NCBI RefSeq assembly: GCF_000378245.1
Contig: NZ_KB899492.1
Span: 434,001 to 498,000, forward strand
DNA from: Aromatoleum toluclasticum ATCC 700605
GTDB taxonomy: Bacteria > Pseudomonadota > Gammaproteobacteria > Burkholderiales > Rhodocyclaceae
Length of the DNA: 64,000 nucleotides
Direction of reading: 5' to 3'
The notes under the pieces are model-generated. The model searched no databases, was not told where the DNA came from, and saw only the letters and a program-made list of their open reading frames with translations. This document shows positions 570 to 28,842 of the stretch, piece by piece; position 1 is the first letter of the stretch, and each line of letters opens with the position of its first letter. The translations under genes and the position numbers were made by a program.

Positions 570-1253
570 TCAGCCCGGTTGGTGCTGCGGCGCCTCGGCG
601 TTCTTCGGGATCTTCGCCAGCGCGGTCTTGCCCTTGGCCGTCAGGAAGGGCTCCACGAGCAGCAGCAGGCCTTCCTCGACGTATTCGGCGAGGCTGAAGC
701 GGTCGTCGAAGGCCCAGTGCTTGAGCGCCCAGGCGTGGGCGAAATTGACGATCTGGTAGCCGAGCAGATATTCGTTCACCGGCCGCATGAAGCCGCCGGT
801 CGTGCACGCGCGGATCGACTTCTCGATCATGCGGTTGGTGCGCGTCTCGCCGTCCTTGATCAGCACGCGCCGGTCGGCGCGCAGGGATTTGGTCGAGCGG
901 TAAGCGAGCACCGTCGCCTCGCGCTGGGCGTCGACCACCGCGCAGTAGGCCCATACGGCGCCGCACAAGCGTTCGACGGGGTGCGTCAGGCCTTCGATCT
1001 GGCGCGGGATTTCCTGCTCGTAGGTGTCGAGCACGTTCTTCAGCGTCAGGAACAGGATGTCGTCCTTGTCGCCGAAGTACTGGTAGATCAGGCCGGTGCT
1101 GACCTTGGCCTCGCGGGCGATCTGCAGAATCGTCGTCGTGTAGTAGCCCTGCTCGGAAAAGAGCTTGGTGGCCGCGCTGATGATCTGGTGACGGCGCTCC
1201 TCGACCAGCTTCGGGTCCGTGACCACGCTTTTGACGCTTTCTGCTGAACTCAT
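570..1253 (-). CDS. TetR-family transcriptional regulator of the catabolic island
   Basis: A 227-residue TetR/AcrR regulator. The N-terminal helix-turn-helix spans about residues 20-65, with the signature region TTTILQIAREAKVS-GLIYQYF. The C-terminal part is the variable ligand domain, which in such families often binds an acyl- or aryl-CoA. I chose the ATG at 1253 because GAGGGAAGGGAC precedes it; an upstream ATG at 1283 has no ribosome site. It is the last gene of the minus-strand island, 102 bp after the crotonase gene at 1356-2111. It is the only TetR regulator in the window, so it is the natural candidate to bind the six TGAATGAA-type palindromes found upstream. No such palindrome lies directly in front of tetR itself. 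The inducer is unknown. Confidence 0.88.
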   Translation of the reverse strand: MSSAESVKSVVTDPKLVEERRHQIISAATKLFSEQGYYTTTILQIAREAKVSTGLIYQYFGDKDDILFLTLKNVLDTYEQEIPRQIEGLTHPVERLCGAVWAYCAVVDAQREATVLAYRSTKSLRADRRVLIKDGETRTNRMIEKSIRACTTGGFMRPVNEYLLGYQIVNFAHAWALKHWAFDDRFSLAEYVEEGLLLLVEPFLTAKGKTALAKIPKNAEAPQHQPG

Positions 1254-1355
1254 GTCCCTTCCCTCGGTGAACCATTGCCGCAAAGCCCGGCGTTGGCCGG
1301 ACGCCGTATTGTGCCACCGGAGCGGCCGGGTTTCCGCGTCGCCGTTCCCCGGACC

Positions 1356-2111
1356 TTACTGACGGTTCAGAAAGGCTCGCACGCGCTGCTGCGTTTCGCC
1401 GTCGGCGAGCAGGGCCGCGCTGCCGGCGAGTTCGACCTCGTAGCCGTCCTCGCGGCCTTCCACCGCGACCGTGATGCAGCGCTTGCACTCGGACAGCGCC
1501 AGCGCGGGCAGTGCGGCGATGCGCGCGACGATTCCGCGGGTGAAGCTCTCCAGTTCGGCCGCCGGGGCGACCCAGTGCGCGCAGCCGAGCGTCACGGCGT
1601 CCGCGCCGCCGAGGACTTCGGCGCCGAGGATCAGGCGTCGCGCGACGGCCTCGCCGCAGATGCGCGTCATGCGCTGCGTGCCGCCCGCGGCCGGGAGCAG
1701 GCCCAGACGCGCTTCGGGCAGGCCGACCTTGGCGCTGTCGGCGACGACGCGCAGGTCGCACGCGAGCGCGAGTTCGAAGCCGCCGCCCATCGCCGCGCCG
1801 CCGATTTCCGCGACCGTGACCTGCGGCAGGCGTTCGAGGCGGGCGTAGAGCTGCTGCATGCGCCGCGTGATGTCTATCATCTGCACGCGCCCGGCCTCGG
1901 TGGCGAACAGCGCGCCGATCACTTCAAGGTCGGCGCCGGCGCAGAACACGCGCTCGGCACTGCGGATCCACAGGACGTTGATGCGCGGCGTGTGTTCGAG
2001 TTCGGCGAGGATGCGGTCGAATTCGGTTATCCATTCATCGTTGATCGCGTTGACCGGGGCACGGCACAGCGTCACGGTCGCGATCGAATCGTCAATCCTC
2101 AGCGAAATCAT
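1356..2111 (-). CDS. enoyl-CoA hydratase (crotonase family), catalytically complete
   Basis: A 251-residue crotonase-fold enzyme. Both glutamates used by enoyl-CoA hydratases are present: E113 in GGGFELALACD and E133 in LPEARLGLLPAAGGTQR. The oxyanion-hole segment CAGADL is at about 57-62. It should hydrate a cyclic or linear enoyl-CoA. BadK-type cyclohexene-carboxyl-CoA hydratases have the same motif layout, so it is a candidate for the hydration step after ring reduction in this island. The start at ATG 2111 is chosen because the sequence upstream of it runs into a palindromic repeat. It lies between a non-canonical crotonase gene and the TetR gene. Confidence 0.85.
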   Translation of the reverse strand: MISLRIDDSIATVTLCRAPVNAINDEWITEFDRILAELEHTPRINVLWIRSAERVFCAGADLEVIGALFATEAGRVQMIDITRRMQQLYARLERLPQVTVAEIGGAAMGGGFELALACDLRVVADSAKVGLPEARLGLLPAAGGTQRMTRICGEAVARRLILGAEVLGGADAVTLGCAHWVAPAAELESFTRGIVARIAALPALALSECKRCITVAVEGREDGYEVELAGSAALLADGETQQRVRAFLNRQ

Positions 2112-2150
2112 TGCGATGTCCTTTTTGGCCCGAGCGCCATCAACTACGTA

Positions 2151-2215
2151 CCGTTCGGGCTGAGCCTGTCGAAGCCCTGCTGAACGCGGCCCTTCGACAA
2201 GCTCGGGGCGAACGG
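2151..2215. repeat. palindromic intergenic repeat (CGTTCGGGCTGAG family)
   Basis: Left arm beginning CCGTTCGGGCTGAGCCTGTC at 2151 is nearly the reverse complement of the right arm ending at 2215 (CCCTTCGACAAGCTCGGGGC then GAACGG). The arms are about 27 bp with a short centre. This is a widespread betaproteobacterial intergenic palindrome, able to form a long hairpin. The wider gap 2112-2410 between two crotonase genes holds this repeat and otherwise shows no gene. Confidence 0.8.
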
Positions 2216-2410
2216 CTTCTGCGTTGCTGCAGTGGAAAAAAACGGGGCGTCGCCGGCCTCTGCGCACATCGGAGGAGAGATCTTTGGCATAACGCACAGG
2301 CCGCGAATGCGACGCCCCTGGCAAACCGGCCGGCGAAACTGCGCGTCAAACCGGCCGTACGGCAAGGCGCATCCGGGCGGCGGGGACGGCCGCACCGGCG
2401 CGCCGGAACG

Positions 2411-3229
2411 TCAATTGCCTTCGAACTTCGGCACCTGCTTGTTCACGAAGGCGTTGTAGGCGCGCGTGAAGTCCTGCGTCTGCATGCAGATCGCCTGGGC
2501 TTCGGCTTCGGTCTCGAGCGCCTGCTCGATGGTCTGGTTCCACTCCTGGTGCAGGCACTTCTTTGTCATCGAATGCGCGAAGGCCGGGCCGTTGGCGAGC
2601 GACAGCGCCAGCTCCTGCGCCTTCGCCAGCACCTTCTCGGCCGGCACGATGTCGTTGAAGTAGCCCCACGCGCGCCCCTCCTCCGCGCTCATTGAGCGAC
2701 CGGTGTAGAGCAGCTCGGAGGCGCGCCCCTGGCCGATGATGCGCGGCAGGATGCTGCACGCGCCCATGTCGCAGCCGGCGAGGCCGACGCGCACGAAGAG
2801 GAAGGCGGTCTTCGCTTCGGGGGTGGCGTAGCGCAGGTCGGAAGCCATCGAGATGATCGCGCCGGCGCCGGCGCAGATGCCGTCCACCGCCGAGATGATG
2901 GGCTGCGGGCAGTTGCGCATTTCCTTGACCAGATTGCCGGTCATGCGCGTGAAGGCCAGCAGGCCGTTCATGTCCATCTTGGTCAGCGGCCCGATGATGT
3001 CATGCACGTCGCCGCCGGAGCAGAAGTTGCCGCCGGCGCCGGTGATGACGACCGCGCGGACGTCCTCGGCGTACTGCAGCTTGATGAAGGTGTCACGCAG
3101 CTCCGCGTAGCTCTCGAAAGTGAGCGGGTTCTTGCGCTCGGGGCGGTTGAGGGTGATGGTCGCGACGCGGTCGACGACTTCGAGCTTGAAGTGTTCCGGA
3201 CGCCATTCGGCGGCTTTGAGCTTGTACAT
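2411..3229 (-). CDS. crotonase-family protein lacking the hydratase glutamates
   Basis: A 272-residue crotonase-superfamily protein preceded by AGGAGACTCTC-ATG. The fold motifs are clear (oxyanion segment NFCSGGDV near 68-75, [15 protein letters not shown] near 118-131). However, the two glutamates of enoyl-CoA hydratases are replaced by I125 and F145 when aligned on the Asp-Leu-Arg and following Gly landmarks. An Asp, D154, sits in the second active-site loop (LAGCDMGA). Crotonase members with non-Glu active sites include ring hydrolases, isomerases and decarboxylases. It may therefore catalyse isomerisation, C-C hydrolysis or another step instead of hydration. An operator-like palindrome lies 39 bp upstream. 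The exact reaction is not known. Confidence 0.8.
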
Positions 3230-3267
3230 GAGAGTCTCCTGAAGGTGGATTACGTGCTTGCGAAATG

Positions 3268-3285
3268 TGATTGAACGATCACTCA
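3268..3285. promoter_or_regulatory. TetR-type operator, short-spacer form, before the 2411-3229 crotonase gene
   Basis: TGATTGAAC-GATCACTCA, an 18-bp imperfect palindrome (7 of 9 pairs). It overlaps the stop codon of the upstream SDR gene. On the minus strand it covers the -35 of a possible promoter, TTCAAT-N17-TAATCC. It has the same outer half-sites as the sites at 8950, 4133, 11231, 17846 and 17896, with a 2-bp instead of a 6-bp centre. Confidence 0.55.
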
Positions 3286-4029
3286 GCCTGCGAGCGTGAG
3301 ACCGCCGCTGACGCTGATGACCTGGCCGGTGACGAAGCTCGCGCGGTCGCTGGCGAAGAACAGCACGGCGTCGGCGAGCTCGGACGGCTTGGCGAGGCGG
3401 CGCATCGGGGTCGCCTTGACGAAGGCCTCGCGGTGCTTTTCCGGCACCGCCTGCAGCAGCGGCGTGTCGGTCGGGCCGGGGCAGACGCAGTTGACGTTGA
3501 TGTTGTAGCGCGCAACCTCGCGGGCGAGCGACTTGGTGAAGGCGATCGCGCCGCCCTTGGCGCCCGAATACACGGTCTCGCCCAGGCTACCGACGCGGCC
3601 GGCGTCGCTCGACACGGTGACGATCTTGCCCGAGCCGCGCTCTATCATCTGCTGCAGGAAGGCCTGCGACACCGCGACCGGCCCGAGCAGGTTGAGGTCG
3701 ATGACCTTGCGCCAGAAATCGGGCGTGTTCTCCATGAAGGGCTGGATCTTGCCCCAGCCGGCAACGTTGGCGACGATGTCGACCTGGGGATGGCGGCGAT
3801 AGGTTTCGTCGCGGAAGGCGTGGATGGAGTCCATGTCGGTGACGTCGAGACGGACGAAATCGACGTCGAGGCGCTGCTCGGCGAGCAGGCCGGCCGCGGC
3901 CGCGCCCTTGGCCGCGTCGATGTCGCCGATCACGACCTTCGCCCCCGCCCGCGCCAGCGTCTCCGCCGTCGCATACCCGATCCCGGATGCACCGCCCGTG
4001 ACGACGGCCGTTTTGCCTTGCAGGTTCAT
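3283..4029 (-). CDS. SDR dehydrogenase, BadH-like (2-hydroxycyclohexanecarboxyl-CoA dehydrogenase type)
   Basis: A 248-residue short-chain dehydrogenase. It has the cofactor loop TGGASGIG at the N-terminus, and the catalytic Ser plus Tyr-X3-Lys in [21 protein letters not shown]. From memory, the stretches '[10 protein letters not shown]', '[12 protein letters not shown]', '[13 protein letters not shown]' and '[12 protein letters not shown]' closely resemble BadH of Rhodopseudomonas, which oxidises 2-hydroxycyclohexanecarboxyl-CoA to the 2-keto thioester. The ATG at 4029 is chosen because GAGGAGACAGAC precedes it. A promoter with an overlapping TetR-type operator lies about 105 bp upstream. 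In this island it would follow hydration of the reduced ring. Confidence 0.8.
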
Positions 4030-4132
4030 GTCTGTCTCCTCATTCACCAGTCATTCGAGCCAGGGGCGTCTTCGCTTCCGCCGCCCCGTTTCCTGTTTGC
4101 TGCAGCGTCCCGAGTCCGGTTCCGTCAGCAGT

Positions 4133-4168: not shown

Positions 4169-4210
4169 GCCCTTTACACAAAATTCCGTCGGGATCGGGC
4201 GATGGACGTC

Positions 4211-5785
4211 CTACAGCCGCCCCGCCTTGAGCAGCTCGCGCAGGCGGAATTTCTGGATCTTGCCGGTCGCGGTGCGCGGCAGCTCGTCGACGAAGCGCAC
4301 GGTGCGCGGGCATTTGTAGATCGAGAGGTTCGCCATCAGCGTGTCCTGCACCTGCGTGGACAGGCGCGACTGGCTCGCTGACGGGTCCTTCGCCACGGCC
4401 ACCAGCACGAGGCGCGTGAGGCCGTCCTCCTGTGGCACGCCGACGACGACAGCCTCGGCGATGTCCGGCGCGGTCATCGCGCAGGCCTCGATCTCGGACG
4501 GGCTCACCCACTGGCCGGAGATCTTCAGCATGTCGTCGGCGCGGCCGTTGTGGTACCAGTAGCCGTCGGCGTCGAAGCTGAACATGTCGCCGGGAAAGTA
4601 CCAGCCGTCGCGCAGGGACTTCGCCGTCTGCTCGGGCAGGTTCCAGTAGCCGCTGAACTGCGAGGGCGTGCGGATCGCGATCTGGCCGGGAACGCCGGGT
4701 TCGGTGATGTCGGCGCCGCTCTCGTCGACCAGGCGCACTTCGGCCCAGGGCACGGGCTTGCCGCAGGAGCCGGGGCGCTGCGCGTGGCCTTCGTTGACGA
4801 GGAAGAGGAAGATCGTCTCCGAGGCGCCGATGCCGTCGACGATGGGCTTGCCGATCGCTTCGAGCCAGGACTCGTACAGCGTCTCGGGCAGCTTCTCGCC
4901 CGCCGACAGGAAATGGCGCACGTTGCGGAAACCTTCGCTCTCGCCCGCCCCCTCGCGCAGCAGGTTGCGGTACATCACCGGCGTGCTGAAGAACAGCGCC
5001 GGCCGGTGGGTGTCGACCACTTCCATGATACGCAGCGGATCTGGCCAGCCGGGGGCGACGACGACCGTCGCGCCGCAGCGCAGCCCGCCCATCATGGAAT
5101 GGCCCAACGCCCAGCCGAAGAACATCTTGGACGTGGCGAAGATGCGGTCGCCGGGGCGCACGCCAAAGTAGTCGGCCTCCATGCGGTCGGCGATCAGCAC
5201 GCAGCCGTGCGTGTGCATCACCGCCTTGGGCCGCCCCGTCGTGCCCGACGAATACACCCAGAAGGCAACGTCGTCAGGCGCCGCCGGCTCCGATGCCAGC
5301 GTGTCCGGTTGCCCGGCGACGAAGTCGTCGAGCGGCACGCCGCCGACGCGCGGCGCGGTGCCGCGCACGACGACCTGCGGCGGATCAGCCAGCTCGGCGG
5401 CGATCTCCTGGTACAGCTGGGCGAATTCGGCATCGACGAAGAGCAGGCGGCAGGCGCTGTCCTCGATCACGTAGCGCACGTCGCGCGGCGCGAGCCGCAC
5501 GTTGAGGGCGACGGCGACCGCGCCGATGCGCATCGCGCCGAGGTAGCCCGCCACCATCTCGGGCGAATCATCCATCAGGAAGAGGACGCGCTCGCCGCGG
5601 CCGACGCCGCGCGCCTTCATCGCGTTGCCGGTGCGATTGACCATCGCATCGAGTTCGCCGTAGGTGACGGAACGGCCGCCACCGACGATCGCCGGCTGGT
5701 CGGCGAGGCCTTGGGCGAGGGGACGGCCGATGATCTCGTCGGCGGCGTTCATCGCGCCGCAGCGTGCGGTGTTGTCGAAACTCAT
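4211..5785 (-). CDS. benzoate-CoA-ligase-family aryl/alicyclic acid-CoA ligase
   Basis: A 524-residue adenylate-forming ligase. It has the ATP loop YSSGTTGRPK, the GIGASE motif, the hinge region near GRADDMLKISGQWVSPSEIE, and the C-terminal catalytic lysine in PRTATGKIQK. It activates a carboxylic acid with ATP and CoA. Overall it is a member of the benzoate/3-hydroxybenzoate/2-aminobenzoate-CoA ligase group, and clearly a paralogue of the BclA-like ligase at 28843-30432. It follows the TRAP transporter genes, so uptake and activation of the same acid are probably coupled. A GC-rich perfect palindrome lies in the 68-bp gap before it. The start at 5785 has a plausible GGAG site. The substrate cannot be read from the sequence. 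Confidence 0.87.
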   Translation of the reverse strand: MSFDNTARCGAMNAADEIIGRPLAQGLADQPAIVGGGRSVTYGELDAMVNRTGNAMKARGVGRGERVLFLMDDSPEMVAGYLGAMRIGAVAVALNVRLAPRDVRYVIEDSACRLLFVDAEFAQLYQEIAAELADPPQVVVRGTAPRVGGVPLDDFVAGQPDTLASEPAAPDDVAFWVYSSGTTGRPKAVMHTHGCVLIADRMEADYFGVRPGDRIFATSKMFFGWALGHSMMGGLRCGATVVVAPGWPDPLRIMEVVDTHRPALFFSTPVMYRNLLREGAGESEGFRNVRHFLSAGEKLPETLYESWLEAIGKPIVDGIGASETIFLFLVNEGHAQRPGSCGKPVPWAEVRLVDESGADITEPGVPGQIAIRTPSQFSGYWNLPEQTAKSLRDGWYFPGDMFSFDADGYWYHNGRADDMLKISGQWVSPSEIEACAMTAPDIAEAVVVGVPQEDGLTRLVLVAVAKDPSASQSRLSTQVQDTLMANLSIYKCPRTVRFVDELPRTATGKIQKFRLRELLKAGRL

Positions 5786-5811
5786 GGGTGCTCCAGGACG
5801 ACCGAAGGGGT

Positions 5812-5831
5812 CCCCGGCGCGCGCGCCGGGG
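5812..5831. other. GC-rich intercistronic palindrome
   Basis: CCCCGGCGCG-CGCGCCGGGG is a perfect 20-bp palindrome between the dctP-like stop and the CoA ligase start. In RNA it forms a stem of about 8 bp with no U-tract. It may lower ligase expression relative to the transporter or stabilise the upstream message. Confidence 0.6.
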
Positions 5832-5853
5832 TGCAAGGGAAATGGCACTCGGT

Positions 5854-6885
5854 TCAGTTCGCGAGCAGCGCCTGGGCTTCGGCCAGCAGCTTCTTGCCGT
5901 CGTAGCCCTTGGCGCTGACCTCCTTGACCCAGTCCGCCGTGACCGATTCGGACGCCTTCTGCCACTTGCCCACCTCGTCGGCGGGCACGGTGTAGAAGGT
6001 GTTCTTGTGGTCGACGCCGGCCTGCCGTCCCGTCAGCGTTGCGTCGTCCCAGATCTTGCCGGCCCACGCGGACACCTCGGGGCCGCTGTTGGCGTCGATG
6101 ACCTTCTTCAGCTCGGGCGGCAGGCTGTCGTATTTCGCCGGATTCATCGCGAGGATGAAGGTCGTGGTCGACAGCAGCGGCATCGTCGGGTCGGTCTCGG
6201 TGTGGTACTTGACGACCTCCTGGACCTTCATCGCCGGCACGACCTCCCACGGGATCATCGCGCCGTCGATCACGCCCTTGGCGAGGCTCTCGGTGACCAT
6301 CGGCACCGGCATCGGCACCGGCGTCGCGCCGAGCGCGCTGAGCATGCGCGTCGCCAGCCGGGTTGGCGCGCGCAGCTTGAGGCCGCGCAGGTCGTCCATG
6401 CTGCGCACCTGCTTCGCGGTGGTGTGCAGCGCCATGCCGGAGATCACGTGGAACACCAGCGGGCGCACGCCCTTGTACTCGGCGGTCGCATTCTTCGTCG
6501 CGTAGGTCCACAGCGCGCGGCTGGACTTCTCGCCCGACACGCCCATGAAGGGCAACTCGAAGGCTTCCGAGACGAGGAAGCGCCCGGCCTGGTAGCCGGG
6601 AACGGCCCACACGATGTCGGCCACGCCGTCCTTGGCCTGGTCGAAGAGCTGCGGCGGCGTGCCGCCCATCTGCATCGCCGGGTAGATCTGGCACTTCAGG
6701 CGCCCGCCCGACTCGCTCGCGAGCTTGGCACACCACGGCTCGAGGAACTTCACCTGCGTGTTCGACGAAGGCGGCAGGAAGTGATGCACGCGCAGCGTGA
6801 CGACCTTGTCCGACTGTGCCTGGGCGGCACCGCCCGCGAGCAGCAGGGCCGCCAGCAGCGGCTTGAGCAGTTTTCCGGTGTTCAT
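5854..6885 (-). CDS. TRAP transporter periplasmic solute-binding protein (DctP type)
   Basis: 343 residues. A Sec signal peptide covers about residues 1-23 (cleavage after AQA). The mature part has the DctP/TAXI-like pattern: LRVHHFLPPSSN near the start, then VADIVWAVPGYQAGRF, and the central region LRGLKLRAPTRLATRML, where the conserved Arg usually contacts the substrate carboxylate. It captures an organic acid in the periplasm and passes it to the DctQM membrane pair encoded just upstream on the same strand. Its position before a CoA ligase suggests an aromatic or alicyclic carboxylate substrate. Confidence 0.9.
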   Translation of the reverse strand: MNTGKLLKPLLAALLLAGGAAQAQSDKVVTLRVHHFLPPSSNTQVKFLEPWCAKLASESGGRLKCQIYPAMQMGGTPPQLFDQAKDGVADIVWAVPGYQAGRFLVSEAFELPFMGVSGEKSSRALWTYATKNATAEYKGVRPLVFHVISGMALHTTAKQVRSMDDLRGLKLRAPTRLATRMLSALGATPVPMPVPMVTESLAKGVIDGAMIPWEVVPAMKVQEVVKYHTETDPTMPLLSTTTFILAMNPAKYDSLPPELKKVIDANSGPEVSAWAGKIWDDATLTGRQAGVDHKNTFYTVPADEVGKWQKASESVTADWVKEVSAKGYDGKKLLAEAQALLAN

Positions 6886-6924: not shown

Positions 6925-8256
6925 TCAGCCGCCGAAGGTCCGAACCAGGTACAGCGTGATGGCGGGGAAAAACAGCAGCAGCGTGATGCGCACGAGGTCG
7001 GATGCGAGGAAGGGCATCACCCCGCGGAAGGTGTCGGTGAGGGGCACGTCCTTCGCGGCCTTGTTGATGATGTAGATGTTCATGCCGACCGGCGGATGCA
7101 CGAGGCCGATCTCGACCACCATCAGCACGAGGATGCCGAACCAGATCGACTTCTCGTCCGGCGTCAGGCCCCAGAACTCCAGGCCCATGACCATCGGGTA
7201 GAAGATGGGAATGGTCAGCAGGATCATCGCCAGCGCGTCCATCACGCAGCCGAGGAAGACGTAGACCAGCAGGATCGCGGTGAGCACCAGCAGCGGCGAC
7301 AGGCCGCTGTCCTTGACCCAGTTCGCGAGCTCCACCGGCATCTGCGTGAGCGCGAGGCCGGTATTGAGCATGTCGGCGCCGAGCAGCACGAGGAAGATCA
7401 TCGCGGTGGCCTCGGCCGCACCGAGGACGCTTTCGCGGATGCCCTCGGCGCGCATGCCGCCGCTGACCACCGCGAGGATGCCGCAGGCCGCGGCGCCGAT
7501 CGACGCCGCCTCGGTGGGGTTCGCCCAGCCGCCGTAGATGCCGACGATGACGACAAGGAAGATCAGCGCGACCGGGGCGACGTTGGCGATCGAGCGCAGC
7601 TTCTCCGCCAGCGGCACGCGCGGGCCGGCCGGACCGGCCTCGGGCTTGAGCGTGACGATGATGCGGATCACCAGCATGTAGCCGAGCATTGCGATCAGGC
7701 CCGGCAGCACGGCCGCCATGAAGAGCTTGCCGATCGACTCCTGCGTGAGCACCGCGTAGATCACCAGCGGCACCGAGGGCGGGATCAGGATGCCGAGCGT
7801 GCCGCCCGCGGCCAGCGCGCCGGTCGACAGCGCGCCCGAGTAGTTGCAGCGCTTGAGCTCGGGCAGCGCGACCTGGCCCATCGTCGCCGCGGTCGCGAGC
7901 GAGGAGCCGCAGATCGCGCCGAAGCCCGCACAGGCGCCGGTCGAGGCGATTGCGACGCCGCCGCGCCAGTGCCCGACGAGCGAGCTCACGCAGCGGAACA
8001 GCGCGCGCGACAGGCCGCCGTGGGTCGCGAACTGCCCCATCAGCAGGAACATCGGGATGACGGCCAGATCGTAGTTGGAGAGCCGGGCGTAGGCGAGGTT
8101 CTTCAGCATGTTGAGGAAGGGCGTGATCTCGCCGCCCATCATCGTCAGGTAGCCCGCTGCGCCGACGAGGAACATGGTGATGCCGATATGCACGCGCAGC
8201 ACCAGCAGCACCAGCAGGACCGCGAACATCGTCGCGCCGATCGCAATACCGCTCAT
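6925..8256 (-). CDS. TRAP transporter large membrane subunit (DctM type)
   Basis: 443 residues and strongly hydrophobic throughout, with about 12 predicted membrane spans. It contains DctM landmarks: GAICGSSLATAATMG, PELKRCNYSGALSTGALAAGGTLGILIPPSVPLVIYA and the second-half repeat GLVHPPVGMNIYIINKAAKD. It uses a sodium gradient to import the solute. The start ATG overlaps the DctQ stop (ATGA at 8253-8256), so the two subunits are translationally coupled. It is followed by dctP after 39 bp. Confidence 0.92.
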   Translation of the reverse strand: MSGIAIGATMFAVLLVLLVLRVHIGITMFLVGAAGYLTMMGGEITPFLNMLKNLAYARLSNYDLAVIPMFLLMGQFATHGGLSRALFRCVSSLVGHWRGGVAIASTGACAGFGAICGSSLATAATMGQVALPELKRCNYSGALSTGALAAGGTLGILIPPSVPLVIYAVLTQESIGKLFMAAVLPGLIAMLGYMLVIRIIVTLKPEAGPAGPRVPLAEKLRSIANVAPVALIFLVVIVGIYGGWANPTEAASIGAAACGILAVVSGGMRAEGIRESVLGAAEATAMIFLVLLGADMLNTGLALTQMPVELANWVKDSGLSPLLVLTAILLVYVFLGCVMDALAMILLTIPIFYPMVMGLEFWGLTPDEKSIWFGILVLMVVEIGLVHPPVGMNIYIINKAAKDVPLTDTFRGVMPFLASDLVRITLLLFFPAITLYLVRTFGG

Positions 8257-8921
8257 TTTTCACCTCCGGCCACGACGCGGAAGCGACGGCCCGCGATATA
8301 CAGGCTGGTCGTCGCGAACAACAGGAAGCCCGGCACGATCAGCGCGATCGACACCCAGCCCGGCCAGCCCAGCATCAGCGAGGCCTCGCCCGATTCGTAG
8401 GACGCGAGCGCCGCGACGGCGGTGCGCCACGTGATGAGCAGCGCGACGACGCCCATCAGCAGCGCCGCCAGCCCGTCGAGGAACGCACGCCCGCGCTGCG
8501 GCAGCCAGTGCGTGAAGAAGTCGACGCGCACGTGGCCGTCGACCATCTGGCAGTAGGAGAAGAAGGTCGCCGACGCGACGGCCGCGCCCATCTGCAGGAT
8601 CTCGAAATCGCCCGGCACCGGCAGCGAGAACAGCTTGCGCCCGACGATGGACACCAGCGACATCCCGATCAGCGCGATGAAGATGGTGCCGCCGATCAGC
8701 GCGGACACCCTGCTGGCCGCGTACAGGCGCCGGCCCCACGGCCCGTGCGGCAGGGCCTCCGGACGGGCGACGTGCTCGATCGAACCGGGTTCGAGCTGGA
8801 CGCCGGCGTCCTCATTCCCGTCGGCCCCTTCCGCCCCTTCCGCACCTCCCGCGCCGCACACCTTCGCGGGCCGCAACCCCGCCGCGGCAGCGGCGTCCAG
8901 GCTCACTACGCTCGTATGCAT
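8253..8921 (-). CDS. TRAP transporter small membrane subunit (DctQ type)
   Basis: 222 residues with four membrane spans in the C-terminal 150 residues (GGTIFIALIGMSLVSIVGRK, then FDGLAALLMG-like and IALIVPGFLLF segments), typical of DctQ. I place the start at ATG 8921 because AGGAGGAGACAATAC precedes it. A GTG further up (8963) would overlap the operator-like palindrome at 8950-8966. The N-terminal 60 residues are long, low in complexity and rich in Gly and Ala, which is unusual for DctQ. First gene of the dctQ-dctM-dctP-CoA ligase unit. Confidence 0.87.
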   Translation of the reverse strand: MHTSVVSLDAAAAAGLRPAKVCGAGGAEGAEGADGNEDAGVQLEPGSIEHVARPEALPHGPWGRRLYAASRVSALIGGTIFIALIGMSLVSIVGRKLFSLPVPGDFEILQMGAAVASATFFSYCQMVDGHVRVDFFTHWLPQRGRAFLDGLAALLMGVVALLITWRTAVAALASYESGEASLMLGWPGWVSIALIVPGFLLFATTSLYIAGRRFRVVAGGEK

Positions 8922-8949
8922 GTATTGTCTCCTCCTTCGTGCGCTCATT

Positions 8950-8966
8950 GGCTGAACGTTCACTCA
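8950..8966. promoter_or_regulatory. TetR-type operator, short-spacer form, before the TRAP transporter unit
   Basis: GGCTGAACGTTCACTCA contains a perfect TGAACGTTCA core (8953-8962). Its outer half-sites are shared with the site at 3268. It lies about 30 bp upstream of the dctQ-like start and downstream of the acyl-CoA dehydrogenase stop. I did not find a convincing -35/-10 pair. Confidence 0.5.
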
Positions 8967-9038: not shown

Positions 9039-10217
<1,179 letters not shown>

Positions 10218-10350: not shown

Positions 10351-11154
10351 TCACATCACCTCGCCGCCGGACACCGAGATCGCCTGCCCGGTGATCGCCT
10401 CCGAGCCCGGCAGGCACAGCCACAACACCGCGTTGGCGACCTCTTCCGGGCGCACCAGACGGCCCTGCGGGTTGTGCTTCGCCAGTTCGGCGAGCGCGTC
10501 GGTCTCGCTGCGTCCGGTCTTCTCGCGGATGTTCGCGACCGCATCGCGCACGATGTCAGTGTCGGTGTAGCCGGGGCATACGGCGTTCACCGTGATGTTC
10601 TTGTGCGCCATTTCCAGCGCCAGCGCGCGCGTCAGGCCGATGACGCCATGTTTGGCGGCGCAGTACGCGGACACGTAGGGATAGCCCTTCTCGCCCGCGG
10701 TGCTCGCGACGTTGATGACGCGGCCCCAGCCGGCGGCGAGCATGCCGGGCAGCGCGGCGCGCGTCGCCAGATAGGTGCCGGTGAGATTCACGTCCAGCAT
10801 CTGCTGCCACAGCGCGGGCTCGGTGCGCAGGAAGGGCGCGCTGCCGGCCTGGCCGGCGTTGTTGACCAGCACCGCGACCGGGCCCAGCGCGCGGGCGGCG
10901 GCAGCGAAGGCCGCTTCGACCGAATCCGCGCTGGCGACGTCGACCGCCTCGCAATGCACCTCGATGCCGCGCGGCCCTGCTTCCGCCCGCAAGGCGGCGG
11001 CGCGCTCTTCGAGCTGTCCGCGGGTGCGGCCCATCAGCGTCAGGTGCGCACCCTGCGCGGCGGCGGCCGCGGCGATCGCGGCACCGATGCCGCGGCCGCC
11101 GCCGGTGATCACCACGTGTTTGCCAGCGAGTGCGCGATCCAGATCTGCCGCCAT
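10351..11154 (-). CDS. SDR-family 3-hydroxyacyl-CoA dehydrogenase-like oxidoreductase
   Basis: 267 residues. It has the classical SDR cofactor loop TGGGRGIG, the NNAG motif in [10 protein letters not shown], and the catalytic Ser with Tyr-X3-Lys in [20 protein letters not shown]. The end [14 protein letters not shown] is typical of acyl-CoA or 3-hydroxybutyrate dehydrogenases of the family. I chose ATG 11154 because GGAGGATGTG precedes it. It is the second SDR of the island and differs clearly from the BadH-like one, so the two probably act on successive hydroxyl groups. A promoter-operator pair matching the one before the BadH-like gene lies 77 bp upstream. Confidence 0.85.
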
Positions 11155-11230
11155 CACATCCTCCGCGTTTGCTTGTCCTTGCCGGTCGAGCCCGCCGCGC
11201 ACCGAGGTCCGGATACGCCTTGCAGTTCGG

Positions 11231-11266
11231 TGAATGAATATTCGTTCATTTCAATCGTACAGTCAA
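11231..11266 (-). promoter_or_regulatory. promoter with TetR-type operator, upstream of the second SDR gene
   Basis: GAATGAA-N6-TTCATTT at 11232-11251. Minus-strand TTGACT (11261-11266) and GAATAT (11238-11243) are spaced 17 bp, the same layout as at 4133-4168. The repressor would cover the -10 element at both promoters. Confidence 0.65.
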
Positions 11267-11341: not shown

Positions 11342-12655
11342 TCAGGCCACAGCGTCGCTCAGGGTTTCCGCGTAGGCCTGGAAGCGCCGGAGTTCCTCGG
11401 GCGGAACGAGCGAGCCGCCCGTCGCCCAGATCACATGCGTGGCGGCGCGCAGATCGAGCCCGTGCTCGCGCACGTAGGCTTGGCCTTCGGCCGAATCGCG
11501 CAGCCACCCCGGCCCGCCGACGCCGGCCGCCGCGGACGGCTCGGCCTCCACGCCCAGCGATCGCTTGAGGGCGCGCAAGTGAACGTAGAGCCGATCGTCG
11601 GGGACGGTGAACACGCCGGCAAGCTGCGCAGCCATCAAGGGGCTGACGAGGTGGGACGCCAAGCCGACGGCGAGACCGTCGGCATCGGTGCGGTTGTCGA
11701 GGCCGATGTCGTAGACGGATACCGGGGCGTCTCCCCCCGAGGCCAGCTGCACCAGCATGCAGGGCGAGGCGACGGGCTCGGCGAAGAAGCAGTGCACATG
11801 ATCGCCGAACAAGGCCTTGAGCCCGTAGGTGATGCCGCCGGGGGCGCCGCCGACGCCGCAAGGGATGTAGACGAAGAGCGGATGCGCGGCGTCCACGACG
11901 CGGCCGGCTTCGGCAAGCTGACGGGCCAGATGACGGGCCGCGGCCGCGTAGCCGAAAAAGAGCAGCGCGGAGCTTTCGTCATCGACGAAATGGCAGCGCG
12001 GCGAAGCCATCGCCTGCTCGCGCCCCGCCGCCACGGCTTCGGCGTAGTCGCCTGCGTGCTCCACGACGCGCACGCCGCGTTTGCGCAGGCGGTCCTTCTT
12101 CCACGCCTTCGCGTCCGCGGACATATGCACCACCGCGTCGAAGCCGAGGGCTGCCGCCATCACGCCGATGCTCAGGCCTAGGTTGCCGGTGCTGCCGACC
12201 GACACCGTGTATTGCGAGAACAGCGCGCGTGCGGGCGCCGTCGCGAGGACGCGGGGATCGCCGCCAGCGGCTAGGAGTCCGTGCTCGATGGCGACGGATT
12301 CGGCGAAGGCGAGCACTTCGTGAAAGCCGCCGCGCGCCTTGATGGACCCGGCAACCGGCAGCTCGTCGTCGCGCTTGATGAACCACGCCCCCTCGGTGCC
12401 ATCCGTGCCGGCCAGCTCGTCGCGGAGCGCAGCGGCGGGCATCAGTTGCGATTCGATATTTCCGTTGCTTGGCGCGAGTTCGGGAAACAGCGTCGCCATG
12501 AGCGGCGCAAAGCGCGCCAGGCGCGCTTCGGCGGCCGCAATCAGCGCAGGCGATGGGGCAGAGGCCGGCAGGGCTTGGCCTCGCCGCGGATTCAGCCAGA
12601 GCAACGGCCGTCGAGATTGAAGCTGCGCCAGCAGTGCCGGAGCGAGAGCAGTCAT
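11342..12655 (-). CDS. dsdA: D-serine ammonia-lyase (D-serine dehydratase)
   Basis: 437 residues, close to the 440-residue length of DsdA. The PLP lysine lies in [14 protein letters not shown], the phosphate-binding loop is [13 protein letters not shown], and [15 protein letters not shown] is the second glycine-rich segment. It converts D-serine to pyruvate and ammonia and is needed for D-serine detoxification or use. I chose ATG 12655 over the longer ORF since the upstream residues are not family-like. There is no DsdC regulator or DsdX permease nearby, and no TGAATGAA operator. It sits inside the catabolic island without an obvious metabolic link, so it may be an insertion that was kept by chance. 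Confidence 0.9.
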
Positions 12656-12804
12656 GTTGCCGATCCTTGCAGGGGGTTCCCGTGTGGATCGCGATCCTAA
12701 GCCCGCTTGGCGCGTGGAAATAGCGATTCTTTCTAAATCATGCATCAGCCCTGCTAATACATCCGGGACCGGACGCCTCCGTTCCCGGGGCGGCGCGCTC
12801 GCCC

Positions 12805-12836
12805 CTTGCGGACGCCGTACAAGCGGCGTCCGCAAG
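12805..12836. terminator. strong hairpin downstream of the reductase operon
   Basis: CTTGCGGACGCCG (12805-12817) and CGGCGTCCGCAAG (12824-12836) form a perfect 13-bp stem with a 6-nt loop, 22 bp beyond the GNAT stop codon. No U-tract follows on the minus strand. It could be a Rho-assisted terminator or a 3'-end stabiliser. Confidence 0.6.
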
Positions 12837-12857: not shown

Positions 12858-13310
12858 TCAGGCGACGGCGTATTCCAGGTTGACCCGCTTCGACGGGGCG
12901 AAACGCTGGCGCGAGAAGAAGCGCGCCAGCGCGAAGTCGTCCCAATTCACCGACGTGTACACCTTCTTCACGCCCGCCACCTTCATGTTCGTCATGAACT
13001 GGTCGAGCAGTTCGCTGCCGACACCGTGGCCCTGCAGCGCCGGGTCGACGCCGATCGTGTCTATCGTCGCCGAGGTCTCGGGGATGCCGAACTCGCCGAA
13101 ATAGATGTCGCCCATGACGAAACCGGCGACGCGGCCGTCGATCTCGCACACCAGCGACACGTTGATGTTGTGATTCGGGTTCAGGGTCGCCGCGATCTTG
13201 CGCGCGTAATACTCGCGCCGATCCTGCTTCGAGGCCACCTGGTCGATGCGCACGATCGCGTCGAGATCGTCCTTCCTGAGCACCCGCATTACCCGCTTCT
13301 GGTTCGCCAT
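12858..13310 (-). CDS. GNAT N-acetyltransferase in the reductase operon
   Basis: 150 residues with a full GNAT fold pattern. The acetyl-CoA loop is [17 protein letters not shown] (Q-G-H-G-V-G), followed by a typical beta-bulge region and [26 protein letters not shown] precedes the ATG. It follows the reductase subunit gene by 49 bp, a gap that contains a GC-rich hairpin, so it is probably co-transcribed. GNAT enzymes acetylate aryl- and acyl-CoA ligases on the lysine of the PX4GK motif in Rhodopseudomonas. Both CoA ligases in this window have that motif, so a control role over CoA activation is possible. The substrate is not proven. Confidence 0.82.
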
Positions 13311-13359: not shown

Positions 13360-14277
13360 TCAGCCCTTGGCGGCCTGCTTCTGCATCAGCGTGTAGCCGA
13401 ACAGCGCAGCGCCGAGTGCGCCGGCGATCTGGCTGTCGATCTTCGTATCGACGGCCTTGATGCCTAGCAGCTTTTCGATGCGCTTCACGACGCCCGGGTT
13501 CTTCGCGATGCCGCCGGTGATGAAGAAGCCCTCTTCCACGCCGATCCGCTCCAGCAGGCTCACGACGCGCTCGGCCATCGCCTGGCAGTACGCCGCGATC
13601 ACCTTGTTCTTGGTGTAGCCGGCCTTCAGCAGCGCCAGCGCCTCGGATTTCGCGAACACCACGCAGATCGACGACACGGCTTCGGGCTCCTCATCGACCT
13701 CGAAGGAGCGCGGGCCCAGCTCGGCGATGGGGATCTGCATCAGGTCGGAGATGACTTCCATGCCGCGACCGGTACCGGCTGCGCACTTGTCGTTCATCAG
13801 GAAGTTGGTGACCTTGCCCTTTTCGTCGCAGTGGATGGCCTTGCAGTCCTGACCGCCCATGTCGAGGATGGTGCGCACCTTGTTGCCGCCCATGTAGTTC
13901 GCGCCGCGGGCGTGGCACGCGATCTCGGTGATCGCCTTGTGGGCGAAGGGCACGTTCACCCGGCCGTAGCCGGTGCCGATGACATGGTGGATGTCCTCGA
14001 GCTTCATCCCGATCTTGTCCATGATGCCGGCAAGCGCATTCTTCGCCGAGTCCGGCGAGTTGCTGCCGGTGCGCATGCTGTTGTAGCCGTACAGCTCGCC
14101 GTCACAGACCAGCACCGCCTGCGAGGACACCGAGCCGACGTCGATGCCGCAGGTGATGATCTTCGCGTCCTTCCAGTTCTTGGTCTCGTCGTACCAGGTG
14201 TTTTCCTGCCAGCGCCAGAATTCCTTCTTCTCGGGGGCGGCGGTGGCGAGCGTCCCCTGATCGATTCCTGCATTCAT
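13360..14277 (-). CDS. bzdQ: benzoyl-CoA reductase-type ATPase subunit, BzdQ-like
   Basis: 305 residues. An N-terminal extension (FWRWQENTWYDE) typical of BzdQ is followed by the ASKHA-type ATPase domain: GIDVGSVSS (44-52), TGYGRVNVPF, LDMGGQDCKAIH (139-149) and TGGIAKNPG near the end. C165 (NDKCAAGTGRG) and C205 (SSICVVFAKSE) are the expected ligands for the [4Fe-4S] cluster shared with the partner ATPase subunit. The BzdP-BzdQ pair hydrolyses ATP to push electrons to the ring-reducing subunits. It is 31 bp after the BzdP-like gene. The length and N-terminal extension point to the Azoarcus (bzd) type, not the longer Thauera BcrA. Confidence 0.85.
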   Translation of the reverse strand: MNAGIDQGTLATAAPEKKEFWRWQENTWYDETKNWKDAKIITCGIDVGSVSSQAVLVCDGELYGYNSMRTGSNSPDSAKNALAGIMDKIGMKLEDIHHVIGTGYGRVNVPFAHKAITEIACHARGANYMGGNKVRTILDMGGQDCKAIHCDEKGKVTNFLMNDKCAAGTGRGMEVISDLMQIPIAELGPRSFEVDEEPEAVSSICVVFAKSEALALLKAGYTKNKVIAAYCQAMAERVVSLLERIGVEEGFFITGGIAKNPGVVKRIEKLLGIKAVDTKIDSQIAGALGAALFGYTLMQKQAAKG

Positions 14278-14308
14278 TTCATTTCTCCTCGATTCATGTC
14301 CGGTCGGT

Positions 14309-15112
14309 TCAGTGCAGGCGCTCGGCCGCGATCAGCGCGCAACCCAGGGCGCTGACGAACTCGGGCAGTTCGGGCAGCAGCACCTCGTCGACCTCCATCG
14401 CGTTCTTCAGCGAAGCGACGAAGCCCGGGTTGTGGCCCATACCGCCGATCAGCACGACCTTGCCGTCGATGCCGACGCGGCGCACCATCGCGCACACGCG
14501 GCTCGCCACCGCATCCAGCACCGCCTTGGCGATGTCTTCCTTCGGCGTCGAGGAGTGGATCAGCGACACGACTTCCGACTCCGCGAACACGGTGCATTGC
14601 GCGTTCATCGGGATGCTCTTGTCCGACTTCAGGCTCGCCTCGCCGAACTCCTTGAGCGACAGCTGCAGCGCGCGGCTCATCGCCTCGGCGAAGGAGCCGG
14701 CGCCTGCGGCGCACTTCTCGTTGCCGGCGAAGTCGATCGCCTTGCCTTCCGGATCGGTCTTGATGCCGCGCCCTTCCTCGGCGCCGACGTCCACGATGGT
14801 GCGCGCCTGCGGGTACATGTACACCGCGCCGCGCGCGCCGGCGGTCATCTCGGTGACGCCTTCGGTGGCGAAGGCGACCTGGCCGCGCCCGGCGCCGGTG
14901 GCAAACACCGACTTCACCTGCCCGCGTTCGACGCCCGCCGCCTTCAGGGCGTCGTCGTAGGCCTGTTCGGCCGCCTGGTCCGCGTCGAGGTCGCCCGGCA
15001 GCATCATGTGCGCCTTCTTCACGACCAATTGCGGCTTGCCTTCCATGTCGAGCTCTTCGAGCAGCACGACCTTGACGCTGCGCGAACCCATGTCGATTCC
15101 TGCGGTGATCAT
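14309..15112 (-). CDS. bzdP: benzoyl-CoA reductase-type ATPase subunit, BzdP-like
   Basis: 267 residues. It begins ITAGIDMGSRSVKVV, the phosphate-1 loop of the BadF/HgdC ATPase family. ATGAGRGQVAFA, VDVGAEEGRGIK and IGGMGHNPG complete the nucleotide site. C134 (NEKCAAGAGS) and C173 (NAQCTVFAESE) are the cluster ligands. It forms the electron-activating ATPase dimer with the BzdQ-like protein. I chose ATG 15112, preceded by GAGGACAGGAAC; the longer frame upstream runs through a GC-rich hairpin. The 148-bp gap to the preceding gene is unusually long for this operon type. Confidence 0.86.
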   Translation of the reverse strand: MITAGIDMGSRSVKVVLLEELDMEGKPQLVVKKAHMMLPGDLDADQAAEQAYDDALKAAGVERGQVKSVFATGAGRGQVAFATEGVTEMTAGARGAVYMYPQARTIVDVGAEEGRGIKTDPEGKAIDFAGNEKCAAGAGSFAEAMSRALQLSLKEFGEASLKSDKSIPMNAQCTVFAESEVVSLIHSSTPKEDIAKAVLDAVASRVCAMVRRVGIDGKVVLIGGMGHNPGFVASLKNAMEVDEVLLPELPEFVSALGCALIAAERLH

Positions 15113-15170
15113 GTTCCTGTCCTCATCTCTTTGGCATTTTCCGTGATTCTTGTCCGGGCGCGTGGCGACA

Positions 15171-15208
15171 CCCGGGGGCCGCCTCCGCGACGGGATGCGG
15201 CCCCCGGG
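15171..15208. other. 12-bp perfect inverted repeat between bzdO- and bzdP-like genes
   Basis: CCCGGGGGCCGC (15171-15182) and GCGGCCCCCGGG (15197-15208) are exact reverse complements around a 14-nt loop. The hairpin occupies the gap between the catalytic subunit genes and the ATPase subunit genes. There is no U-tract, so segmental mRNA stability or partial attenuation is more likely than complete termination. Confidence 0.65.
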
Positions 15209-15260
15209 CACGGCGACGCGGCGCCGCTCTCTGCCGGGTTATCGGGGGTGCTTGTGTGGA

Positions 15261-16571
15261 TCAGGCTGCCAGGCGGCGCAACCCGAGCTGCTCCATGAAG
15301 GCATCCACACGCGCCTGCGTGCGCACTTCGTCGAACTCGCGCTCGTCGCCCATGTTGCCCTCGTAGGTCATGATCGGAATGCCGGCCTTGGCCATCGCCT
15401 GGCGGTTTTCCATGATGCCGACCGAGAGGCCCTCGCAGCCGCGGTTGAGGTGCATCATGCAGCCGTCGACACCCCAGTCGCGCGCGATGTTGAGCATCAT
15501 CTCGGACTTCACCGAGGGGTCGAAGAACTGCTGCCACAGCGGCTTCGAGAGGTTCCAGTCGGCATACAGGCGCAGCGCCGTGTCGCGGTCGTTCATCTCG
15601 ATGCCCTTCTCCCACGGCACCGTGCGCGCGCCCCACGAGCCGTCTTCCTTGTACTCCCACGTGCCTTCGAGGCCGAAGGTGTAGAGCGAGCCGATCGACA
15701 CCGCGCCGTAGCTCTCGAGGTAACGGAAGATCTTGAGGAAAGGCCACGGCGGCTGCGTGTCGGACATCAGGCGGCAGCGCTCGTTGGCCACCGCGGCGAT
15801 GCCGCGCGCGACGCGGTCCTTCACCTCGTCGTACAGCTCGTCCATGAAGTCCGCGCACCACTGCGAGGACTTGTGCAGGATGCACAGCACATACAGCGAG
15901 TACATGGTCTTCTCGTCGAGCGGCGCCGGCCGCGCCTTCTGAAGCTCGCAGATCTGCGCCCAGCGGCTGGTCGAGCGCATCTCGTTCTTGATCGCGCGGA
16001 TCAGCAGCTCGTCGTCGCACTTGCGCCCGGTCGCCTTCTCGACGAACTCGATCGAGTCGTGCAGCTGGCTGGTGACGTAGTCGAGGCGGTCGGGCGTGAG
16101 GTCCTTGTACGCTCCGACCGAGACGTCGACATAGAAGTCAGGGATCTTCTTCACGTGCGCGACGTGCTGGTACCACTTCGCGTGCGAGCAGCAGATCTGC
16201 GTCTGGTAGATGAAATCCGACGTCGGCCACTTGCCGCCGTAGAAGTATTCATCGAGGTGCATGCTGCCCCAGTAGATGCGCATGTAGGAGCACATGTCGC
16301 GCGCGAAGCCGTAGGACTCGGCGGCGTCGAGGCAGCGCTGGGTGAACTTCTTGTCGAGCGACACGCCGGCCGAATACGGTTCGCCGGTCAGCGGATAGAC
16401 GTCGTCGCCGAGCGAGGTCGGGATCGCATCGAAGGACCAGCCCGCCGCGGACCAGCGGATGCCGCCGTTTTCCTTGGCGCGGGCGTAGTTGTGGTAGTAC
16501 TGCTCGCGCAGCTGCTTGGCCTTGCCCCACAGCTTGAGCTGTTCGGTCGGGTAGATCGCCTTGGTGTCCAT
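15261..16571 (-). CDS. bzdO: benzoyl-CoA reductase-type subunit, BzdO/BcrB-like
   Basis: 436 residues in the HgdB/BcrB family (2-hydroxyglutaryl-CoA dehydratase D-component fold). Cysteines in [22 protein letters not shown] and [18 protein letters not shown] are candidate ligands for the double-cubane-type clusters. In the class I reductase this subunit pairs with the BzdN-like protein to bind the aryl-CoA and donate low-potential electrons to the ring. It starts 19 bp after the BzdN-like stop. Its length fits the bzd type (about 50 kDa). Confidence 0.87.
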
Positions 16572-16590
16572 GTCTTGTCTCCTGTCGCGC

Positions 16591-17730: not shown

Positions 17731-17830
17731 GAATCCGTCTCCTTGTGATTGCCCCGCCCTGTCGGGGAGCCTGTCCGGCCAAACCTTCCGATCCCCCACC
17801 CGGTCCTGTCCTGCCTCCACTTCAATCCGT

Positions 17831-17844
17831 TTGATGCCCATCAA
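17831..17844. promoter_or_regulatory. perfect FNR/AcpR-type box
   Basis: TTGAT-GCCC-ATCAA matches the FNR/CRP-family consensus TTGAT-N4-ATCAA at all ten positions. In Azoarcus the FNR-like AcpR activates the bzd promoter under anoxia. Here the box lies about 90 bp upstream of the bzdN-like ATG and abuts a TetR-type operator. I could not match it to a -10 at the class II distance on either strand. Confidence 0.6.
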
Positions 17845-17845
17845 C

Positions 17846-17891
17846 TGACTGAATGTTCGTTCACTCTACATCCGGATTTTCGCGAAATCAA
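17846..17891 (-). promoter_or_regulatory. reductase operon promoter with overlapping TetR-type operator
   Basis: The operator is GACTGAA-N6-TTCACTC at 17847-17866. A minus-strand promoter TTGATT (17886-17891)-N17-TAGAGT (17863-17868) is the best sigma70 match in the region. The operator covers the -10 and the likely start point. Confidence 0.5.
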
Positions 17892-17895
17892 GCAG

Positions 17896-17917
17896 TGAAT
17901 GAACAATTATTCATTCG
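17896..17917. promoter_or_regulatory. second TetR-type operator upstream of the reductase operon
   Basis: TGAATGAACAATTATTCATTCG contains perfect 7-bp arms GAATGAA and TTCATTC with a 6-bp centre. It lies just upstream of the -35 of the putative reductase promoter, about 50 bp from the first operator. Two sites could allow cooperative binding. Confidence 0.65.
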
Positions 17918-28840: not shown

Positions 28841-28842
28841 TT

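What the first reader, a model, noticed from the sequence alone, without database searches (positions are those of the whole stretch)
570..17917. A compact catabolic island pairing a bzd-type aryl-CoA reductase with an ali/Bad-like ring-processing set
The minus-strand block joins a four-subunit ATP-dependent reductase (13360-17730), a CoA ligase, a TRAP importer, an acyl-CoA dehydrogenase, two SDRs, one complete hydratase, one non-canonical crotonase and a TetR regulator. Known bzd clusters carry ferredoxin, ferredoxin reductase and BzdWXY genes next to bzdNOPQ; none is here. The BadH-like SDR plus acyl-CoA dehydrogenase point instead to a route through cyclohexene/cyclohexane-carboxyl-CoA type intermediates, or to a substituted benzoate (3-hydroxy-, 3-methyl- and amino-benzoates are candidates). 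I infer a pathway whose substrate has not been assigned.
Basis: partly seen in the sequence, partly recalled or inferred. Interest (0 to 1): 0.75.

Follow-up and report, generated by a model that had tools for sequence, protein, structure and literature searches.

The report
3-Hydroxybenzoate island with interchangeable reductase activase
This gene block is the known anaerobic 3-hydroxybenzoate degradation cluster of Aromatoleum-type bacteria, and comparing relatives suggests that the ATP-driven part of its ring-reducing enzyme can be exchanged with, or supplied by, the cell's ordinary benzoate enzyme.

Summary
Two were missed (a D-serine lyase and a GNAT), and 'substrate unassigned' does not hold. 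The CoA ligase passes NCBIfam's cut-off for 3-hydroxybenzoate--CoA ligase HbdA, as in 14 of 17 genus genomes (one more has a split gene). A paper on A. aromaticum EbN1 describes this pathway: reductive dearomatization, specific regulation, TRAP uptake. One TetR-type operator stands before each of three inferred operons. The genome also has a bzd benzoate cluster with ferredoxin and ring-processing genes, so nothing essential is missing. The subunit trees gave the interesting part. Catalytic subunits HbdN and HbdO form their own clades; activase subunits HbdP and HbdQ do not. In four relatives P and Q are 97-100% identical in DNA to that genome's own bzdPQ, while N and O stay at 81-88%. Two relatives have lost hbdPQ, and four loci from other genomes lack it. 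HbdO carries 33 fixed differences from BzdO, HbdN and HbdQ none. They include loss of Ser44, which lies near ring carbon C3 in the solved BzdNO structure, fitting a 3-hydroxy group. The pathway is known; the exchangeable activase, inferred from sequence only, is the new point.

The parts
570..1283 (-). TetR-family regulator, probable repressor of the island
   Evidence: PF00440 3.4e-16; present in 14 of 15 relative loci fetched, L040's stretch starts too late to show it
1356..2324 (-). crot1, enoyl-CoA hydratase with both catalytic Glu positions (5' end of the ORF probably over-called)
   Evidence: PF00378 2.8e-42; alignment
2411..3229 (-). crot2, crotonase lacking both Glu positions; 85-99% identical in the 14 relative loci that show it
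   Evidence: NF006107 489 bits against cut-off 330
3268..3285 (.). weak operator-like site before crot2
   Evidence: 2 mismatches
3283..4047 (-). SDR1, BadH-like but under the BadH cut-off
   Evidence: TIGR03206 250 against 431 bits
4133..4154 (.). TetR-type operator before SDR1
   Evidence: exact match to TGAAYGANNNNTCRTTCA at 4133
4211..5854 (-). HbdA, 3-hydroxybenzoate--CoA ligase
   Evidence: NF053567 1042 bits against cut-off 1000
5854..6885 (-). DctP, TRAP binding protein
   Evidence: PF03480 4.2e-45
6925..8256 (-). DctM, TRAP large permease
   Evidence: PF06808 9e-88
8253..8963 (-). DctQ, TRAP small permease
   Evidence: PF04290 9e-18
9039..10217 (-). acyl-CoA dehydrogenase
   Evidence: PF00441 1.2e-47; under the cut-off of every NCBIfam model listed
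10351..11202 (-). SDR2
   Evidence: PF00106 1.3e-59
11231..11248 (.). TetR-type operator before SDR2
   Evidence: exact match
11342..12835 (-). D-serine ammonia-lyase, probably a passenger gene (own locus plus L035, L043, L045; L033 ends before this point)
   Evidence: NF002823 594 bits against cut-off 246
12858..13310 (-). GNAT acetyltransferase; a paralogue lies in the bzd cluster (76%)
   Evidence: PF00583 8.9e-12
13360..14277 (-). HbdQ, activase subunit
   Evidence: TIGR03192 660 bits against cut-off 380
14309..15211 (-). HbdP, activase subunit
   Evidence: TIGR00241 193 bits against cut-off 125
15261..16571 (-). HbdO, active-site subunit ([4Fe-4S] cluster and substrate pocket, by homology to BzdO)
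   Evidence: TIGR03191 971 bits; BzdO 8s02_A 811 bits
16591..17844 (-). HbdN, electron-transfer subunit by homology to BzdN (likely start 17730)
   Evidence: TIGR03190 855 bits; BzdN 8s02_B 792 bits
17846..17917 (.). two TetR-type operators before hbdN
   Evidence: sites at 17846 and 17896, 1 mismatch each

Best explanation
This is the hbd cluster for anaerobic 3-hydroxybenzoate degradation. The TRAP system imports 3-hydroxybenzoate and HbdA makes 3-hydroxybenzoyl-CoA (inferred from families). HbdPQ uses ATP to energise electrons from ferredoxin; HbdNO passes them to the ring, giving a 3-hydroxydienoyl-CoA (by homology and the EbN1 paper). The hydratase, crotonase, SDRs and acyl-CoA dehydrogenase then run a modified beta-oxidation towards 3-hydroxypimeloyl-CoA; which enzyme does which step is not resolved here. 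Ferredoxin comes from the bzd cluster in trans (inferred). A TetR protein probably controls three operons through one operator type (motif shown, binding inferred). HbdO is the specificity subunit: changing Ser44 to Ala and Ala45 to Gly (BzdO numbering) probably makes room for the C3-hydroxyl (inferred). The activase PQ is not specific: it has been re-copied between the hbd and bzd loci, or lost from hbd (shown by sequence), so BzdPQ probably can drive HbdNO (inferred).
For: HbdA over its cut-off and in 14 of 17 genus genomes. Block conserved in the 15 relative loci fetched, exceptions listed in the report. EbN1 pathway, specific regulation and TRAP uptake (PMC9765128 passages). bzd cluster elsewhere in the genome. 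Operator pattern: 7 matches, all inside the block, 0.46 expected; same positions in relatives. HbdO and HbdN single clades, P and Q not (protein trees of O and Q). Within-genome DNA identity of P and Q 97.4-100% in G005, G007, G008 and G011 against N 86-88% and O 81-82%, with the step at the O/P border. In one search, 9 of 10 genomes have one BzdQ over the cut-off and one has none. 33 fixed HbdO/BzdO differences, 0 in N and Q; Ala at Ser44 in 22 of 22 HbdO rows, Ser in 30 of 30 BzdO rows; Ser44-OG lies 3.6-4.0 A from ring C3 (PMC11971306 section 9).
Against: No expression or biochemical data for this genome. Gene names beyond HbdA are recalled. In the window's own genome the homogenisation is weak (Q 93.7%, P 85.9% nt). 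Loss of hbdPQ could mean that the hbd enzyme is dead in those strains, although N and O are intact there. 12 genus genomes keep two Q copies, so a local copy seems useful. No purified-protein test of sharing was found in the searches made.
Confidence: 0.92

Rival explanations
1. The cluster serves another aromatic acid (for example 3-methyl- or an amino-benzoate) or a cyclohexane carboxylate, and the HbdA match is only family resemblance.
For: SDR1's best NCBIfam match is BadH, and the acyl-CoA dehydrogenase matches two cyclohexanecarbonyl-CoA dehydrogenase models.
Against: Both fall far below those models' cut-offs, while HbdA exceeds a strict one. The solved 3-methylbenzoyl-CoA reductase MbdO matches HbdO at only 52 bits, BzdO at 811. 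The EbN1 pathway description fits.
Confidence: 0.05
2. P/Q near-identity reflects strong purifying selection or assembly collapse, not gene conversion or re-copying.
For: Q is also conserved between species (92-95% aa to the window's Q); many genomes are drafts, and G001's contigs end at this spot.
Against: In G005 P and Q are 99.6 and 100% identical at third codon positions, against 75.7 and 71.5% for N and O. G005 and G011 hold the two copies far apart on one long contig. The window's P differs by about 8-16% nt from hbdP of other species.
Confidence: 0.05
3. The activase was never part of the ancestral hbd locus. HbdNO worked with BzdPQ, and a PQ-GNAT block was copied into hbd in the Aromatoleum ancestor. 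(Compatible with the main explanation; it concerns the history.)
For: The hbd loci L056, L058, L060 and L061 lack PQ. GNAT, which shows no homogenisation, has its hbd and bzd copies together in one Aromatoleum clade (95*).
Against: L057 and L059, outside the genus, begin a P gene after O at the contig end. Loss in some lines plus conversion in others would look alike. The hbd GNAT rows are not one clade in the best tree, though holding them together is not rejected (AU p 0.186).
Confidence: 0.4

Closest known systems
hbd cluster of Aromatoleum (3-hydroxybenzoate; strains EbN1 and CIB)
   Same: HbdA ligase, bzd-type reductase, TRAP importer, SDRs, crotonases, acyl-CoA dehydrogenase and TetR in the same order in L034 and L037, the loci that I take for CIB and EbN1
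   Different: The window carries an extra D-serine ammonia-lyase; L037 has an extra transporter-like gene before hbdA
bzd cluster (benzoate), BzdNOPQ
   Same: Same BZD-type four-subunit class I reductase; N 88%, O 75%, P 87%, Q 94% aa to the own-genome copy
   Different: hbd lacks the ferredoxin, BzdV and BzdW/X/Y-type genes; HbdO has 33 fixed differences
mbd cluster (3-methylbenzoate), MbdNO
   Same: Class I reductase for a meta-substituted benzoyl-CoA (PDB molecule name of 9g87)
   Different: Distant: 52 and 96 bits to HbdO and HbdN; that type is said to form a permanent heterotetramer (PMC11971306 section 4)
Bad/ali pathway of Rhodopseudomonas palustris
   Same: BadH-like SDR and acyl-CoA dehydrogenase family matches
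   Different: Both are well below the equivalog cut-offs

Membership tests
hbd (anaerobic 3-hydroxybenzoate) cluster | 3-hydroxybenzoate--CoA ligase HbdA | tested here: met
   1042 bits against cut-off 1000
hbd (anaerobic 3-hydroxybenzoate) cluster | Dedicated bzd-type catalytic subunits distinct from the benzoate ones | tested here: met
   HbdO and HbdN single clades, 100* and 99*
hbd (anaerobic 3-hydroxybenzoate) cluster | Synteny with characterised strains | tested here: inconclusive
hbd (anaerobic 3-hydroxybenzoate) cluster | Induction by and growth on 3-hydroxybenzoate | not testable with these tools
   Needs culture work
BZD-type class I benzoyl-CoA reductase | Active-site residues (Cys95, Cys128, Cys380, Glu65, His131, Trp46, Tyr97 of BzdO) | tested here: met
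   All invariant in 22 HbdO rows; residue roles from PMC11971306
BZD-type class I benzoyl-CoA reductase | Activase P and Q subunits | tested here: met
   13360-15211 in the window; not met in several relatives' hbd loci
bzd benzoate cluster | Adjacent ferredoxin, BzdV and BzdW/X/Y-type genes | tested here: not met
   No orthologue in the window; present on contig C13
Bad/ali cyclohexanecarboxylate route | BadH and cyclohexanecarboxyl-CoA dehydrogenase over curated cut-offs | tested here: not met
   250 against 431 bits; 193 against 575 bits

The most novel reading that the evidence does not exclude
In these bacteria one ATP-dependent activase (PQ) serves two or more ring reductases. Substrate choice lies in the O subunit, with a Ser44-to-Ala/Ala45-to-Gly switch opening space at ring C3. 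Homogenisation or loss of the local PQ copy is the evolutionary sign of that sharing. Class I reductases of this type would then be modular: new substrates are reached by changing NO while PQ stays common.
Probability: 0.7. Interest if true: 0.65.

Novelty: new member of a known kind. Interest (0 to 1): 0.5.

Why it matters
What the comparison adds is a testable rule for BZD-type benzoyl-CoA reductases: the PQ motor is interchangeable between reductases of one cell, and a few residues beside ring C3 in the O subunit may set preference for a meta-hydroxylated substrate. That bears on engineering biological Birch reductions, and naturally occurring strains without hbdPQ offer ready-made tests.

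Tried and rejected
Rejected: a Bad/ali route (cut-offs missed). An essential gap in the cluster (genes present on C13). A role for the D-serine lyase in the pathway: of the 15 loci that can be judged (own plus 14; L033 ends earlier) 4 have it, and L035 and L043 have a divergent LysR gene beside it and no GNAT, so I take it as a passenger. The C30 locus (L011) as a third aryl-CoA reductase: it passes the generic activase domain model, but its activase pair and double-cubane part stay below the bzd, bcr and double-cubane cut-offs listed; left open.

Led nowhere: paper searches for the hbd cluster (searches gave none; one search gave 90 papers, 20 listed, none of them visibly on this subject, none opened) and for 3-hydroxybenzoyl-CoA (13 papers, mostly plant polyketides; none opened). 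A CIB hbd paper that I recall was not found. 'benzoyl-CoA reductase' with 'gene conversion' gave one paper, on Vibrio essential genes, not opened. So 'not in print' for the shared activase can only mean: not found. Papers seen: passages of PMC9765128 and PMC8388817; abstract, outline, passages and sections 4 and 9 of PMC11971306; all others only as search listings.

Rows and choices: one search kept hits with at least 80% coverage and 60% identity (58 O rows, 47 Q rows), so the G006 hbdQ remnant was dropped. One search kept 70% and 55%, used 14 hbd, 16 bzd and 8 of the 20 other-genome bzd loci, and left out L047, L107 and the six other-genome hbd loci. Loci held twice through two collections, and the truncated or broken L067 and L081, were not used in trees. 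The hbd group of the AU tests was set by synteny but after the tree had been seen. The operator motif was read off the G009 locus before it was counted, so its statistic is post hoc; so is the segment 42-81. Structure prediction and fold search were not used.
Full report
What is there. O and N match the solved BzdO and BzdN chains (8s02) at 811 and 792 bits.

What it is. The ligase scores 1042 bits to NCBIfam's 3-hydroxybenzoate--CoA ligase HbdA (cut-off 1000). Of 41 genomes searched (own plus 40 relatives), 14 exceed that cut-off, all in the genus: 14 of its 17 genomes. Of the other three, G003 has the gene split into two matches, and G010 and G014 have no match near the cut-off. I fetched 15 relative loci. 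The block is syntenic in them, with these exceptions: L033 stops at its contig end after SDR2; L040's stretch starts too late to show TetR and the crotonases; L038 and L041 lack a usable PQ; L035, L041 and L043 lack the GNAT; L047, from another genus of the family, is rearranged. PMC9765128 (passages) describes for A. aromaticum EbN1 anaerobic 3-hydroxybenzoate breakdown by reductive dearomatization to 3-hydroxydienoyl-CoA and modified beta-oxidation to 3-hydroxypimeloyl-CoA. It reports specific regulation with some exceptions at transcript level (EbN1_C03750/70), and TRAP uptake under anoxic conditions. G005, whose contig C1 is 4,296,230 bases, is probably EbN1 (length recalled) and has the block at 411-431 kb.

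What is supplied in trans. A second bzd-type set lies on contig C13, with benzoate-CoA ligase, hydratase, dehydrogenase, ring hydrolase, a BzdV-like protein and a ferredoxin. Two full bzdO-type genes occur in 15 of 17 genus genomes, one in G014 and none in G010. An aerobic box benzoate cluster lies further along the window.

Regulation. TGAAYGANNNNTCRTTCA with up to 2 mismatches occurs 7 times in 64 kb, at five places, all inside the block (0.46 expected; 0 of 100 shuffles reach 7). The strong sites stand before hbdN (two), SDR2 and SDR1, which suggests three operons. With a slightly looser pattern all 15 relative loci have a site before SDR1, 14 of 15 before SDR2 (not L047), and 14 of 15 before hbdN (L033 ends earlier). 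The motif was chosen after seeing one relative's sequence.

Two histories in one enzyme. On DNA trees, HbdO and HbdN are each one clade (100* and 99*, 38 rows each). For P and Q (36 rows each), holding the hbd rows together is rejected (AU p 1.4e-53 and 3.9e-51). Within genomes, hbd and bzd P/Q DNA identity is 99.9/100% in G005, 99.1/99.8 in G007, 97.4/98.1 in G008 and 98.9/99.6 in G011; N there is 86.2-87.8% and O 80.6-82.0%. In the other 8 genomes with both, P is 84-87% and Q 93-97%; the window's own values are 85.9 and 93.7. In 150-base steps identity jumps at the O/P border and falls just after Q; G005 has a 1099-base identical run. In the window's genome the pattern is patchy: high in Q and in part of P only. 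GNAT, next to Q, shows no such homogenisation (77-81%).

Loss of the local activase. In one search, 9 of 10 genomes have exactly one BzdQ over the cut-off and one (G042) has none. In one search, 12 genus genomes have two each, and G014, G153 and G186 have one each (G153 and G186 appear to be G044 and G046 again, by equal coordinates). In G009, hbdO is followed by SDR2, with a 42-base Q footprint and a 54-base remnant of the O/P junction left. In G006, about 50 bases at the start of P are followed directly by the 3' part of Q, 98.9% identical to its own bzdQ. L056, L058, L060 and L061 have 8-10 kb after O without P or Q at E 1e-3; L055 has about 0.5 kb without it. Two of these four genomes (G017, G046/G186) are in another genus of the family; L058 and L060 come from uncultured betaproteobacterial assemblies. 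L057 and L059 start a P gene at the contig end; L059's is 96% identical to its own bzd P over 241 bases, while L057's could not be compared with its own copy. G001 cannot be judged because its contigs end there.

Specificity. Across 22 HbdO and 30 BzdO rows there are 33 fixed differences. N (20 and 30 rows) and Q (12 and 30) have none, and P (12 and 30) has 2, both in columns before the window protein's aligned start. Fourteen of the 33 fall in residues 42-81 (binomial p 4.5e-7, segment chosen after looking). The catalytic residues named in PMC11971306 that I checked are unchanged, but Ser44 is Ala and Ala45 is Gly in 22 of 22. That paper places ring C3 3.6-4.0 A from Ser44-OG, Glu65 and the cluster-bound water (section 9). 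A 3-hydroxyl could sit there (inference; C5 is the other meta position and was not examined). [quoted passage not shown]

Verdict. A known kind of cluster whose substrate is effectively assigned. The exchangeable activase and the C3 pocket change are the parts worth following.

Noticed in passing
window 12858-13310 and L009:14233-14685: A GNAT acetyltransferase follows the reductase genes in hbd loci of the genus (own plus 10 relatives) and lies in all 16 genus bzd loci fetched and in 18 of 22 other bzd loci, the other four being short or cut there. Its role is unknown; it might modify the ligases or the reductase.
   Followed up: partly
window 11342-12835; L035, L043, L045: D-serine ammonia-lyase inserted between two hbd operons in 4 of 15 judged loci, with a divergent LysR gene and no GNAT in L035 and L043.
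   Followed up: partly
window 17924-21357: Two DUF3304 genes and a gene with a T6SS Tle1-like phospholipase domain directly beside hbdN.
   Followed up: no
window 21782-39987: Aerobic benzoate stretch with BoxB, BoxC, benzoate-CoA ligase and an ABC importer; importer and ligase are 65-73% identical to those of the bzd cluster.
   Followed up: partly
L011:8734-11750 (contig C30): A third activase pair, one subunit fused to a double-cubane-type protein, near a MalT-like regulator and acyl-CoA genes; below the bzd and bcr cut-offs.
   Followed up: partly
L035 (G003) hbdA: hbdA gives two adjacent partial matches in this relative, as if split.
   Followed up: no
L037:4137-5381: An extra transporter-like ORF on the other strand lies between SDR1 and hbdA in the EbN1-like locus; the window has no room for it.
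   Followed up: no
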